Assembly (NCBI GenBank): GCA_947496355.1
Contig: CANMCO010000003.1
Span: 434,001-498,000 of the forward strand
Reading direction: 5' to 3'
DNA: 64,000 nucleotides
DNA from: an uncultured Aquimarina sp.
GTDB taxonomy: Bacteria; Bacteroidota; Bacteroidia; Flavobacteriales; Flavobacteriaceae
Shown here: positions 39,588 to 45,514 of the stretch, in pieces
Layout of the letters: the number at the start of each line of letters is the position of its first letter
Numbering within the stretch: position 1 is the stretch's first letter
The notes under the pieces: generated by a model
What the model saw: only the letters and a program-made list of their open reading frames with translations
What the model was told of the DNA's origin: nothing
Databases searched by the model: none
Translations under genes and position numbers: made by a program

Positions 39588-42440
39588 CTATATTTTTTGG
39601 GTTTTCCGCCAGATTTTTGAAGTGCTTAAAATAAAAAATAAAAGTATGAAGATGGCAATTGTCCCAATCCATAATATTGGATTAACAGGCTGCTGTGGTG
39701 TCCCTATCTCACCCAATAAAATAAAATTTGCCCAGTAATATGGATGTCTTTTATTTGGTTCTATTTTTGAAAGATAATCCAATTTGGATTGATGCAATGC
39801 AAGATCAATAGGTTGTCCTTCGTGTACATACTCTAGAAATGAAGTAGTAATTGCCATAGAGCTCGCCTCTGAGGCGTTCCATAAACTAGATAGAATATTA
39901 TGAGCGCCTCCTAAAAGAAAGGATTTACTCATTCCTTGAACACCTTCACCATTATATATTTTTCCGCTAGCAGAATGACAAGTGCTTAACAGTACTAAAT
40001 CTGCATTTATTCGGTTTCCGTAAAGATCAAGAGGGGAAAGTATAAATTCTTCCTGATCATCATCAAAAATAATACAAGATCGGTTTGGGTCATCAATATC
40101 AACTAGCCCATGTAAAGAAAGATGTATAATATCTGCCTCATCACTATGCTCAAAAAAATTTGATAAAGAGGCGTCATTATCTATAAATATTTCTCCATTA
40201 AAAATTGCAGAACCTCGTTTTATTTCTTCGTGTGATAAAGCAAGTTGCATTAGGTTTTCATCACCAAAAAACCGTTTACGTGCTTTTAGTTTTTCATTAA
40301 GACTATTGCTATACTTAGTTCCAAAACCAATATAGCTTTCAAGGTCCTTATCATGATGTTCTCTAAGTAATAACGAGATAGAATAAGAATAAGAAATAGC
40401 GTAATCCTGAATTAAATATTTGTCAGGATTTTTATCTCCATCAATTAATGCCTCAAAAGATAGTTTATGTAGTTGACCATCGGGGATAATGCATAAACGC
40501 TTTATTTTCTGATCTATTTCTTTGAGACCTTTCTGAAGAAGCTTCTCAAATATCATTTCAGAAAGCTCTGGTGAGACTGCCGTGTTTGGATTGTGACATT
40601 GAACACTAAAATTATCCAAGGCCGTTTTAATCTCATTATTATACGGAATAGTAATGGGAATAAAATCTTCATTTGTTAACCAAAAACTATAGATCATATC
40701 CTTAGAAAGAAAATATTCTATTACGACCATATCTCTTGGTAAAGCTTTTTGCATGTCTTTTACCTGAGGGGGGCGAATAAAAGCATATTTTTCTTTAAAA
40801 TAAGTAGGTTCTTTTTGTTCTATTTCTGTTAGATAACTATCCAATTCATATTGCGCTTTTGTATATATTTGAAGAAGTGAATCACTATCGTGAGTAGCTT
40901 CAGAGAGTAAAGCCTGCTGGGTATGCATTTCGTTTCTCAAAGCTTTTTCTTTACGAATAACATCTTCAGGAACATTAGATTTAAAAGCATCCACTTGATT
41001 TAGTTCATATTGCAGTACAATAGCTTTAGTTTTTGAAGAAAAATAATATGCCTCTTCTCGGTAAAATTGATCTCCAGTTATTTTATATAATTTCAATGCA
41101 TCTTGAACTGCTTTGCCGTAATGCTCAAATTTTAGGTTTAAGAAATCTAATTTTGATTGCTCGAATTGAAAAGAAACTAAACTTCGATTGATCACCGAAT
41201 CAATTTTATGCTGGGTAGTGAGTGCTTTTTTAAGGAATTTAATATTGTTGGAGTCTTCAAATTTTGCCTCATATATCTTTACTTTTAATTCTATTAACCG
41301 AATCAAGTGTCTGTCATCAAATATTTTTGATTTTCTTATCACCGGCATATGATCTACATCAAAACTACTAGAAGGTAAAAGGATATCAAACGCTTTATTT
41401 AGGTATTGATTGGCCTTTTTATCATCTCCTTTTCTTATCAAAATGTCGCAAAGATTTTCATACCCCCTTGCCATAGAATGTTGGTTCTCTCCTTTTGAAT
41501 ACAGTACTTTTCTTATACTAAGAACCTTATTCATATTCTTCTCTGCAAGATCAAATTTTTCCTGATCGGCTTGAATTATAGCCACCAATTCTAATGCAAT
41601 AGAATAAAAGAAGGGCTCTGTTTCTTTATCCAATAAGGTCAAAGATTTTTGAGCCATCTGTTGTGCGATATCATACTCTTTAAGCCCTAAATAAGTAGTT
41701 CCTGCATTAAGATAAACCAATGATAAGTCTAATTTAGGAATTTCTTCAGCAAATTGATCATAGATAGATAGAGCTTCCTTTATATATTCTTTGGCTTTTT
41801 CATAATTCTTGAATTCCATACTCATAGTAATTAAGTTATTAAGTACTTCAAATTCATTTACTTTATTATCATTCTGGCCTCTATATAAATTGATGGCGTT
41901 TTGGAAATATAATTCTGCTCTAAAAATATCATTCAAATTTTTATAGAACTTACCGATACCGTGATATTTTCGTGCTAATTTCAATGCAGGGTATTCTGGA
42001 TCATTTTCAAAAATATGTAGTGCCTTATCTATATATGATTTAGCAGATTCTAGTTTGTCGAGATATTGATACGAAATACCTATATTATATATGGTATTTG
42101 CCTTCTCGGAAGGAGGAACCCGCGAACAATCTTTCCATGTACTTAATACTTCATCCCTAAAATATGCAATGGCTTCTGATTCTCGATTGAGTTTATAGTA
42201 AGATACTCCAATTTTATGCAAGATTTTTCCTTTATGATAACAATCCAATTCTTGATATGATTTTTGAGTTATTAATTTTTCAATCAATATCAAATTATTT
42301 TCGTAGAGCTCTTCTTGAATGTTTTGATTAATTTTTTGAAATTGTTCTTGAAAAAAATCATTTTTGATTTGTATAGAACCCCATGATGATGTCGAAACAA
42401 TAAAAAAAATGCACGTAAATATGAAAGAAGGGTATCTCAA
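39588..42440 (-). CDS. TPR-CHAT (caspase-like) protein with signal peptide and C-terminal TM
   Basis: Tandem TPRs; CHAT catalytic His in IIHLSLHGLVD and Cys in LVLLSTCHSASGKIYNGEGVQG; C-terminal ILWIGTIAIFILLFFIL. Confidence 0.92.
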   Translation of the reverse strand: MRYPSFIFTCIFFIVSTSSWGSIQIKNDFFQEQFQKINQNIQEELYENNLILIEKLITQKSYQELDCYHKGKILHKIGVSYYKLNRESEAIAYFRDEVLSTWKDCSRVPPSEKANTIYNIGISYQYLDKLESAKSYIDKALHIFENDPEYPALKLARKYHGIGKFYKNLNDIFRAELYFQNAINLYRGQNDNKVNEFEVLNNLITMSMEFKNYEKAKEYIKEALSIYDQFAEEIPKLDLSLVYLNAGTTYLGLKEYDIAQQMAQKSLTLLDKETEPFFYSIALELVAIIQADQEKFDLAEKNMNKVLSIRKVLYSKGENQHSMARGYENLCDILIRKGDDKKANQYLNKAFDILLPSSSFDVDHMPVIRKSKIFDDRHLIRLIELKVKIYEAKFEDSNNIKFLKKALTTQHKIDSVINRSLVSFQFEQSKLDFLNLKFEHYGKAVQDALKLYKITGDQFYREEAYYFSSKTKAIVLQYELNQVDAFKSNVPEDVIRKEKALRNEMHTQQALLSEATHDSDSLLQIYTKAQYELDSYLTEIEQKEPTYFKEKYAFIRPPQVKDMQKALPRDMVVIEYFLSKDMIYSFWLTNEDFIPITIPYNNEIKTALDNFSVQCHNPNTAVSPELSEMIFEKLLQKGLKEIDQKIKRLCIIPDGQLHKLSFEALIDGDKNPDKYLIQDYAISYSYSISLLLREHHDKDLESYIGFGTKYSNSLNEKLKARKRFFGDENLMQLALSHEEIKRGSAIFNGEIFIDNDASLSNFFEHSDEADIIHLSLHGLVDIDDPNRSCIIFDDDQEEFILSPLDLYGNRINADLVLLSTCHSASGKIYNGEGVQGMSKSFLLGGAHNILSSLWNASEASSMAITTSFLEYVHEGQPIDLALHQSKLDYLSKIEPNKRHPYYWANFILLGEIGTPQQPVNPILWIGTIAIFILLFFILSTSKIWRKTQKI

Positions 42441-42558
42441 AATTACAACTTGGGATTAATAGATATTATGATCGTAACGGTAATCTTTGAGGTACTAAGA
42501 TAGCAAAACGTTAATTTTTTTTATGGTTATCCGTACATTTAAATATTAAAACTAACAA

Positions 42559-42592
42559 AAAAGGATATATGATTCAAATCACATATCCTTTT
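42559..42592. terminator. Hairpin terminator between subtilase and CHAT genes
   Basis: AAAAGGATATATGATTCAAATCACATATCCTTTT. Confidence 0.7.
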
Positions 42593-42611
42593 AAACTGTA
42601 AGTAATTTGTG

Positions 42612-44219: not shown

Positions 44220-44271
44220 ATTTAAGTGTATATAATGGTTTAGTTTTAAGAGAATAGTCTTGTTAGGGTTA

Positions 44272-44949
44272 TTATTCGTTTAACGTTTTTAATAATTCTT
44301 GTGCATGTAAGTAGTTCCAATCTGTACTACTAATTTGTTTTAATAATTTTTCTGCTTTTTCGTTTTGTTTGTCAAGAAGATATGCTAAGGATAGATACCA
44401 ATTTAATTCCTGTTTGAATCGTTCATTACTTTTAATTGTTTCAAGTTTTTGAATGGCTTCAGTATATTTAGAGTTTAATAGAAATGCCAATCCCTCGTAA
44501 TACAAATCTTCGTCATTTATAGTTTCAATGCTTTGGAAGTATTTGCTTGATTTATCATATTCTCCATTGTTAAAAGCCTGAATAGCTAATGTTCTGCTTT
44601 CGTCTCTTTTTTCAATACCTTTTGAAGCTCCAGGATGCAATATTTCTTGTTCATTTAGATATTGCTGTGCTAAATCACTTGGATTTGAAGATGCGCCAAA
44701 AAACTGTATAGTTATTAGTATACTTATGCAAGCAGCTGTAGCTAAAATGATTTTTAATGTATTAGAAAATTTGATTGTCATGTTTGAGTTGTTTTCATTC
44801 CTTGTTATCTTATATTTATTACTCAGCACTCCTCTCCATTTAGTTTTTAATGCTTCGTCATGCTTTATTTTTATAATATCCTCTAGGATTTGATCCTCTT
44901 CTTTTTTCGAGATATTAGGGTCTAAAAGTTTATTTAATTTATCTCTCAT
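44272..44949 (-). CDS. Single-TM TPR-like protein, possible anti-sigma or adaptor
   Basis: TM IILATAACISILITIQFFG then TPR-like AIQAFNNGEYDKSSKYFQSIE repeats; overlaps the sigma gene. Confidence 0.75.
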   Translation of the reverse strand: MRDKLNKLLDPNISKKEEDQILEDIIKIKHDEALKTKWRGVLSNKYKITRNENNSNMTIKFSNTLKIILATAACISILITIQFFGASSNPSDLAQQYLNEQEILHPGASKGIEKRDESRTLAIQAFNNGEYDKSSKYFQSIETINDEDLYYEGLAFLLNSKYTEAIQKLETIKSNERFKQELNWYLSLAYLLDKQNEKAEKLLKQISSTDWNYLHAQELLKTLNE

Positions 44950-45514
44950 TACTTACTATTGTTTTTAGGCTTAATTGATCTTTAAGCTGTTTGATACATC
45001 GCTCTTTCTGTTTTCTAATTGTCGCCGGAGTTTTTTGTGACTCCTCCGCTATTTCCGACAATTTCATTTTTCCATAGAAATGTTTGGTGAGTAGTTGTTT
45101 ACAGGAGTCGCCCAATATTTTCCAGGCTTTATTGAGTCGTCCTAGTTCTTCTTCTTGCACTACAGGTTCTTCATCTACCTCTTGTACCAAGCTAGTTAAA
45201 CCATCATCTATAGTTTTTGCATTTTTTTTCAGGTTTCTGAGTAACATTTGAGAAGCCATCTTTGTAAAAAGAAAACGCAGATTCCCATACTGTAGCTTTC
45301 CGTCTACAAATCTTGTTCTGAATTCTATTAATGCATCCATAGTTGCATCATAAGCATCCTCGTGATTTGATTTGTATTCTCTACAGAGATAATTCATAGT
45401 TCCTTTAAATTGTTTAAGAAATACCTGTTCAAAAAAATAAGTGTCATTTCTTTTTAAATCAGTTATAAGCTTTTCAAATGATGCTTCGCTTAATCCAAAA
45501 TTTTTGTTTTTCAT
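44939..45514 (-). CDS. ECF-type sigma-70 factor
   Basis: YLCREYKSNHEDAYDATMDALIEFR (region 2) and KLSEIAEESQKTPATIRKQKERCIKQL (region 4 HTH). Confidence 0.88.
   Translation of the reverse strand: MKNKNFGLSEASFEKLITDLKRNDTYFFEQVFLKQFKGTMNYLCREYKSNHEDAYDATMDALIEFRTRFVDGKLQYGNLRFLFTKMASQMLLRNLKKNAKTIDDGLTSLVQEVDEEPVVQEEELGRLNKAWKILGDSCKQLLTKHFYGKMKLSEIAEESQKTPATIRKQKERCIKQLKDQLSLKTIVSNER

What the first reader, a model, noticed from the sequence alone, without database searches (positions are those of the whole stretch)
39588..45514. ECF sigma / TM-TPR / T9SS subtilase / TPR-CHAT protease operon: a candidate protease-cascade system
Seen: four consecutive minus-strand genes. An ECF sigma factor overlaps by 11 nt a single-TM TPR protein; then come a secreted S8 subtilase with intact D/H/S motifs and a TPR-CHAT protein with intact His (LSLHG) and Cys (STCHSASG) motifs, a signal peptide and a C-terminal TM. 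Known: CHAT domains are caspase-like and are used in conflict and cell-death contexts; TPRs act as sensor or adaptor scaffolds. Inference: the two proteases are co-regulated and could form an envelope cascade, with the subtilase processing the CHAT protein or the reverse, and the TM-TPR protein acting as an anti-sigma or adaptor. The predicted extracytoplasmic placement of both proteases would be atypical for a cytosolic CHAT effector.
Basis: partly seen in the sequence, partly recalled or inferred. Interest (0 to 1): 0.75.

Follow-up and report, generated by a model that had tools for sequence, protein, structure and literature searches.

The report
Sigma/anti-sigma module with two envelope proteases
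In the marine bacterium Aquimarina, a stress-type sigma factor, its membrane anti-sigma partner, a secreted subtilisin-like protease and a caspase-like protease form a conserved gene module that probably senses something in the cell envelope and switches genes on, resembling in principle the protease-controlled sigma factor of CRISPR 'Craspase'.

Summary
The four genes and their motifs are real. They are not one operon: a hairpin terminator separates SIG-TM-S8 from CHAT in all 14 type A orthologues tested, and no copy of the module's promoter-like element precedes CHAT.

The core is sigma / membrane TPR protein / TPR-CHAT; the subtilase is optional cargo. In six Aquimarina genomes 29 of 30 TM proteins lie within 8 kb of a CHAT gene (0.8 expected) and 29 of 30 lie beside a sigma gene of one divergent ECF clade; only 5 of 30 modules carry a subtilase. 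The TM protein's N-terminus is homologous to ordinary anti-sigma domains, so it is very probably the anti-sigma. TPR-CHAT is predicted periplasmic, with invariant His and Cys.

Two promoter-like sites (TGTCACR-N16-YTTATA), before the sigma gene and before a downstream DUF2490/P-loop/DCC/ABC operon, track presence of this module across 26 genomes, implying an autoregulated sigma with an envelope output operon.

Best reading: periplasmic TPR-CHAT controls the anti-sigma, probably by cleavage, releasing sigma. Precedents are Craspase (Csx29/Csx30/CASP-sigma), Myxococcus DdvA (anti-sigma fused to CHAT) and actinobacterial ECF54. New variant of a known kind.

The parts
44939..45514 (-). SIG: divergent ECF sigma factor (191 aa), member of the CHAT-linked ECF clade
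   Evidence: TIGR02937 60.3 bits; the six CHAT-adjacent sigmas form one clade among the 40 ECFs of the genome
44272..44949 (-). TM: anti-sigma-like protein, cytoplasmic N-terminal helical domain, one TM, periplasmic TPR domain (225 aa)
   Evidence: AF2 pLDDT 85; PDB TPR matches at best E 2.6e-3; N-terminal domain homologous to proteins encoded beside ordinary ECFs, 21/26; N-in in 58/58
42612..44219 (-). S8 type A subtilase: signal peptide, Asp-rich stretch, prodomain-like region, catalytic domain, T9SS C-terminal domain (535 aa)
   Evidence: PF00082, PF18962; invariant D175/H213/N306/S376
42559..42592 (-). intrinsic-terminator-like hairpin between S8 and CHAT
   Evidence: hairpins in 14/14 type A loci tested
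39588..42440 (-). CHAT: periplasmic TPR-CHAT caspase-like protein with signal peptide and C-terminal TM (950 aa, TTG start)
   Evidence: PF12770 E 1e-45; H777/C821 invariant; AF2 pLDDT 88.7; best PDB matches Csx29/Craspase, separase, DdvA
45604..45632 (-). promoter-like element 1, TGTCACGTTTTGGTTTTTACGACCTTATA, upstream of SIG (about 90 nt)
39488..39516 (-). promoter-like element 2, TGTCACACTATTATTTTTTCTTCCTTATA, 48 nt upstream of the DUF2490 gene
38591..39439 (-). DUF2490 protein, first gene of the putative output operon
   Evidence: PF10677 E 2e-18; syntenic in most type A loci
37491..38534 (-). 347-aa P-loop protein (weak AAA_26, CbiA, MobB and DUF1611 matches)
   Evidence: a 347-aa gene at this place also in Poritiphilus and the Saprospiraceae locus
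36988..37449 (-). 153-aa one-TM protein
35654..36991 (-). 445-aa membrane protein with C-terminal DCC1-like oxidoreductase domain
   Evidence: PF04134 E 1.6e-30
33868..35541 (-). 557-aa ABC exporter (TMD plus NBD)
   Evidence: PF00664, PF00005; syntenic

Best explanation
An envelope-signalling module. SIG is an ECF sigma held at the membrane by the TM protein, an anti-sigma with a cytoplasmic anti-sigma domain, one TM and a periplasmic TPR sensor domain. TPR-CHAT is a caspase-like peptidase anchored on the periplasmic face of the inner membrane and made from its own transcript. When its TPRs sense an unknown envelope ligand, it cleaves the periplasmic part of the anti-sigma (site-1 step); the resident M50/RseP-like protease could finish the release. 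SIG then amplifies its own operon (SIG-TM-S8), so the T9SS subtilase is secreted, and turns on the DUF2490/P-loop/DCC/ABC operon. Shown here: genes, conservation, topology predictions, intact active sites, transcript architecture, motif co-occurrence. Strongly inferred: the TM protein is the anti-sigma (about 0.9) and SIG uses the TGTCAC elements (about 0.8). Weaker inference: CHAT cleaves the anti-sigma (about 0.45). Guess: nature of the signal and function of the output.
For: Core triad: 29/30 TM within 8 kb of CHAT against 0.78 expected, 29/30 beside SIG. CHAT-linked sigmas are one ECF clade. TM N-terminus matches genes beside ordinary ECFs, 21/26 against 0/20 for its TPR part. TM sensor part and CHAT catalytic part are predicted in the same compartment. 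His and Cys invariant in 45 CHATs, also in modules without S8, so the active site is maintained where S8 is absent. CHAT fold closest to Csx29, which cleaves the sigma inhibitor Csx30 (PMC10028731); also close to the transmembrane anti-sigma DdvA, whose PDB chain is named a CHAT domain-containing protein. TGTCACR-N16-YTTATA: 13 hits at the module in the 7 genomes that have it (SIG and DUF2490 promoters), 1 elsewhere in those 7, 4 in 19 genomes without it; spacer+1 control gives none at the locus. One M50 protease in the genome.
Against: No cleavage or expression data. Within single genomes SIG and TM distances correlate, but CHAT distances do not follow SIG (own genome r=0.03, G008 r=0.14), so pairing of CHAT with a given anti-sigma is loose or reshuffled. 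11 of 41 CHAT genes lack a TM neighbour. One SIG/TM pair (G003) has no CHAT near. CHAT could equally be a target of the anti-sigma's TPRs or a sigma-independent effector.
Confidence: 0.5

Rival explanations
1. One reading: the two proteases act on each other (CHAT matures or activates the secreted subtilase zymogen, or the subtilase activates CHAT), with the sigma pair only setting their dose.
For: S8 lies directly beside CHAT in type A and in the diverged type B, in a Saprospiraceae-like locus without a SIG-family gene in the fetched stretch (L206), and in a Thermomicrobiales-like contig sigma > HxxxCxxC protein > CHAT > S8 (L193). An Asp/Glu-rich run is in 15/15 type A S8s and in 1/37 control subtilases, and that one (L193) is the only control beside CHAT and sigma. 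ECF54 context also holds subtilase plus CHAT (PMC8999054).
Against: 25 of 30 sigma/TM/CHAT modules have no S8; type B S8s lack the acidic run (0/20); S8 carries a T9SS signal, so it should pass the periplasm quickly; separate transcripts. L193's CHAT shows no obvious signal peptide, unlike its S8.
Confidence: 0.25
2. CHAT is an output: the anti-sigma's TPR domain senses the signal by itself, and CHAT plus the subtilase are envelope effectors (degradation of damaged or foreign protein, or self-killing).
For: The TPR domain on the anti-sigma could itself sense; CHAT families are used as effectors elsewhere (general knowledge).
Against: The SIG promoter motif precedes SIG and DUF2490 but not CHAT; terminator before CHAT. 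No PADLOC hit for CHAT.
Confidence: 0.2
3. Coincidental neighbours: four independent envelope genes.
For: 11 of 41 CHATs stand without a sigma/TM pair; order varies among modules.
Against: statistics, two diverged S8-containing configurations, conservation to Saprospiraceae, type A monophyletic in SIG, TM and CHAT trees.
Confidence: 0.03

Closest known systems
Craspase / CASP: Csx29 (TPR-CHAT), Csx30, CASP-sigma of type III-E CRISPR (PMC10028731)
   Same: TPR-CHAT peptidase, an ECF sigma and a sigma inhibitor; CHAT cleavage of the inhibitor is reported to relieve sigma; putative sigma sites within the own locus. Best fold matches of the window's CHAT.
   Different: No Cas7-11 or crRNA found; CHAT is predicted periplasmic and membrane-anchored; the inhibitor is a membrane TPR anti-sigma, homology to Csx30 not tested; T9SS subtilase as cargo.
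DdvS/DdvA of Myxococcus xanthus (PDB 8rot, 8rw5; PMC4374960)
   Same: ECF sigma controlled by a transmembrane anti-sigma whose PDB chain is named CHAT domain-containing protein; DdvS is active when DdvA is inactivated.
   Different: There anti-sigma and CHAT are one 991-aa chain; here two proteins. Whether DdvA's CHAT is catalytic was not determined here.
ECF54 group of Actinobacteria (PMC8999054)
   Same: ECF with subtilase and CHAT in its genetic context, proteolytic control proposed.
   Different: ECF54 is described as lacking an anti-sigma and with a carboxypeptidase; the present modules have an anti-sigma-like TM protein and no carboxypeptidase was seen. Sequence membership not tested.
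RseA/DegS/RseP-type regulated proteolysis of anti-sigma factors
   Same: Predicted logic: periplasmic site-1 protease, then M50 site-2 protease.
   Different: The site-1 role would be played by a caspase-like CHAT instead of DegS; not demonstrated.

Membership tests
ECF sigma factor | TIGR02937 sigma70-ECF score above cut-off | tested here: met
   60.3 bits against 42.9; also at genome level
ECF54 | subtilase and CHAT in the genetic context | tested here: met
ECF54 | no anti-sigma factor; carboxypeptidase nearby | tested here: not met
   anti-sigma-like TM protein adjacent in 29/30; no carboxypeptidase seen among the annotated neighbours
ECF54 | sequence membership in the group | not testable with these tools
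   no ECF54 model at hand
Membrane anti-sigma factor | gene beside an ECF gene, N-in, one TM, anti-sigma domain at N-terminus | tested here: met
   29/30 beside SIG; 58/58 N-in; N-terminal homology to genes beside ordinary ECFs 21/26
Membrane anti-sigma factor | binds and inhibits its sigma | not testable with these tools
   needs pull-down and reporter assay
CHAT peptidase (clan CD) | CHAT domain with His and Cys dyad | tested here: met
   PF12770 156.6 bits; H777/C821 invariant in 45
CHAT peptidase (clan CD) | proteolytic activity | not testable with these tools
   no assay
Craspase / type III-E CASP | Cas7-11 (gRAMP) and crRNA bound to TPR-CHAT | tested here: not met
   no cas gene matched among the neighbours examined; only the CHAT fold and the sigma logic are shared
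S8 subtilase, T9SS cargo | D/H/S triad with N; signal peptide; Por_Secre_tail | tested here: met
   SprA present
Known anti-phage defence system | match to PADLOC models | tested here: not met
   only a generic 'subtilase' model hit (32 bits) and a chance-level hit (E 0.061)

The most novel reading that the evidence does not exclude
Bacteroidota use a large family of periplasmic caspase-like TPR-CHAT proteases as dedicated site-1 proteases for cognate TPR anti-sigma factors: a CRISPR-free counterpart of the Craspase output, duplicated many times per genome with exchangeable secreted cargo (subtilases, lipoproteins) and its own promoter code for each paralogue.
Probability: 0.4. Interest if true: 0.82.

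Novelty: new variant of a known kind. Interest (0 to 1): 0.62.

Why it matters
CHAT proteins are abundant and mostly unexplained outside CRISPR. If the model holds, many Bacteroidota CHAT genes gain a testable role, control of sigma factors from the envelope, and Craspase becomes one branch of a wider TPR-CHAT/anti-sigma theme. The locus gives a ready candidate substrate (the adjacent anti-sigma), predicted promoters for reporters, and paralogues for specificity tests.

Tried and rejected
Four-gene operon: rejected because of the conserved hairpin between S8 and CHAT and the absence of the TGTCAC element before CHAT. Defence system: no relevant PADLOC hits. PDB sequence search with the single CHAT domain found nothing; a profile was needed. 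Metagenome scan with S8 used generic subtilase words and returned generic subtilases; kept as a control, where 1 of 41 loci had CHAT and sigma. First genome-wide motif scan had a one-base spacer error and serves as spacer control. Shared prodomain-like segment between S8 and small lipoproteins of S8-less modules: only weak (hhalign P 9e-4, probability 23), not used. CHAT/SIG co-diversification within a genome: not found. sigma-70 TTGACA/TATAAT scan: no excess over shuffles. DdvA active-site residues could not be read from the alignments shown.
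Full report
What is there. SIG (44939-45514) is a divergent ECF sigma (TIGR02937 60.3 bits). TM (44272-44949) overlaps it by 11 nt and has one TM. S8 (42612-44219) has Peptidase_S8 and a T9SS sorting domain. CHAT (39588-42440) has TPRs and a CHAT domain. S8 residues D175, H213, N306, S376 are invariant in 17 homologues; CHAT H777 and C821 are invariant in 45. 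The closest named loci are from Aquimarina, so the genome is most likely an Aquimarina species.

Transcript architecture. Shortly after the S8 stop codon there is a 15-bp hairpin followed by a T-rich tail (42592-42559). A strong hairpin lies at the same place in all 14 type A loci tested, from Aquimarina to Poritiphilus; in some of them the T-run is part of the stem and less canonical. SIG-TM-S8 are tightly spaced in most loci. So SIG-TM-S8 is probably one unit and CHAT another.

Not chance, but a different core. The own genome has 8 CHAT genes; 6 have a sigma/one-TM gene pair nearby, and only two loci have an S8. The six sigmas form one clade among the 40 ECFs compared. In six Aquimarina genomes a TM-family profile gives 30 strong hits with a sharp gap below them; 29 lie beside a SIG-clade gene, and 29 lie within 8 kb of a CHAT gene against 0.78 expected by chance. 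The sigma gene next to the remaining TM appears only as two partial hits, probably a broken copy. Five of the 30 modules contain an S8 (own A and B, L050, L117, L121). The others carry lipoproteins, PKD/DUF proteins or nothing between the sigma pair and CHAT.

Two S8-bearing forms. Type A is SIG>TM>S8>CHAT, usually followed by DUF2490, a 347-aa P-loop protein, a 153-aa one-TM protein, a DCC-domain membrane protein and an ABC exporter. It is found complete in 16 loci: 14 Aquimarina including the window, Poritiphilus flavus and a Saprospiraceae MAG. Many of these are close relatives and not independent; the last two are the more telling. Type B has the sigma pair divergent from a lipoprotein-type S8 followed by CHAT, in Aquimarina, Flavivirga and another Flavobacteriaceae genome. 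Type A is monophyletic in the SIG, TM and CHAT trees (supports 0.998, 0.998, 1.0); type B nearly so, but with weak CHAT support. In 401 genomes sampled across the class, an S8 type A profile at E<=1e-40 found only the own genome and three more distant proteins of one other family, so type A is rare.

The TM protein is an anti-sigma. Its N-terminal region gives 26 weak hits in the six genomes; 21 lie 20-208 nt from an ordinary ECF gene. Of 20 weak hits to its C-terminal TPR part none lies within 500 nt of one. Hydropathy and charge give N-in, one TM, C-out in 58 of 58. The AF2 model shows N-terminal helices, a TM helix and a TPR domain (mean pLDDT 85.2; TPR matches in PDB). CHAT has a signal-peptide-like N-terminus in 69 of 71 and a C-terminal TM in 64 of 71, mostly with positive charges behind it, so its catalytic part should be periplasmic, next to the TPRs of the anti-sigma.

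Regulon. A TGTCACG...TTATA element with 17 bases between the two blocks lies 75-92 nt before SIG in most type A loci, and TGTCAC[AG]...TTATA with the same spacing lies 35-54 nt before DUF2490 (or the P-loop gene) in most; L060 and L063 lack the second site. In the window two matches occur against 0.03 expected in shuffles. Across 26 genomes the pattern TGTCACR-N16-YTTATA gives 13 hits at the module in the seven genomes that have type A, 1 elsewhere in these seven, and 4 in the 19 without it; with one more base in the spacer none lies at the module. The simplest reading is that SIG recognises these sites, controls its own operon and the DUF2490-ABC operon, and does not control CHAT. Type B has a different conserved element (TGGGTAAT...) before its S8 and, in the own genome, a second copy before the lipoprotein gene after CHAT, which suggests the same design with another specificity.

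Mechanism. The best PDB fold matches of the CHAT model are Csx29/TPR-CHAT of Craspase (E 2.4e-15), separase, and the transmembrane anti-sigma DdvA (E 2.3e-13); a CHAT-domain profile finds Csx29-type proteins and DdvA by sequence too. Csx29 cleaves Csx30, an inhibitor of an ECF sigma (PMC10028731). DdvS becomes active when its anti-sigma DdvA is inactivated (PMC4374960). I therefore propose that periplasmic TPR-CHAT controls the TM anti-sigma, most likely by cutting it, with the single M50 protease of the genome as a possible second step. The cut itself is inferred, not shown. Evidence against tight pairing: inside one genome CHAT distances do not follow SIG distances.

Role of S8. S8-CHAT adjacency recurs in type A, type B, L206 and L193, a contig whose S8 is closest to Chloroflexota/Thermomicrobiales proteins, where the order is sigma > HxxxCxxC protein > TPR-CHAT > S8. 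The actinobacterial ECF54 group is also reported with subtilase and CHAT (PMC8999054). An acidic run is present in all 15 type A S8s checked, in none of 20 type B, and in 1 of 37 control subtilases, that one being L193. A direct S8-CHAT relation is thus a real rival or addition, but not the constant part of the module.

Verdict. The association of ECF, subtilase and CHAT has a published precedent in another phylum, so this is a new variant of a known kind; the periplasmic split form, the anti-sigma identification, the predicted regulon and the paralogue family were not found described in the held literature, which lacks most subscription journals and the main ECF classification paper.

Noticed in passing
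L193:4939-10630: Thermomicrobiales-like metagenome contig with ECF > HxxxCxxC anti-sigma-like protein > TPR-CHAT > S8 with a long Asp run: the same gene set in another phylum. Its CHAT shows no obvious signal peptide.
   Followed up: partly
L104, L105, L108, L119, L120 (genes between SIG and CHAT): Small lipoproteins in S8-less modules show a weak similarity to the prodomain-like segment of type B S8 (hhalign P 9e-4, probability 23).
   Followed up: partly
window:44040-44100 (S8 N-terminus): Asp/Glu-rich run conserved in type A S8s and rare in other subtilases; candidate recognition or cleavage segment.
   Followed up: partly
G000:C6:271882-271911 and 276285 onwards: Type B promoter-like element TGGGTAAT... 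before S8b and a second TGGGTAAT before the lipoprotein gene that follows CHATb.
   Followed up: partly
window:45854-46405: Universal-stress gene divergent from SIG is 183 aa while its counterparts in related loci are about 261-285 aa; possibly truncated or wrongly started.
   Followed up: no
L206:4472-9807: Saprospiraceae-like genome with a large T9SS-type S8 overlapping a TPR-CHAT gene and no sigma pair seen in the fetched stretch.
   Followed up: no
G000:C13:117914-119047: 377-aa protein with a 12-Asp run directly next to an ordinary ECF sigma gene.
   Followed up: no
genus-wide: CHAT gene number varies from 0 to 16 per genome within one genus, so the family seems to be gained and lost quickly.
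   Followed up: no
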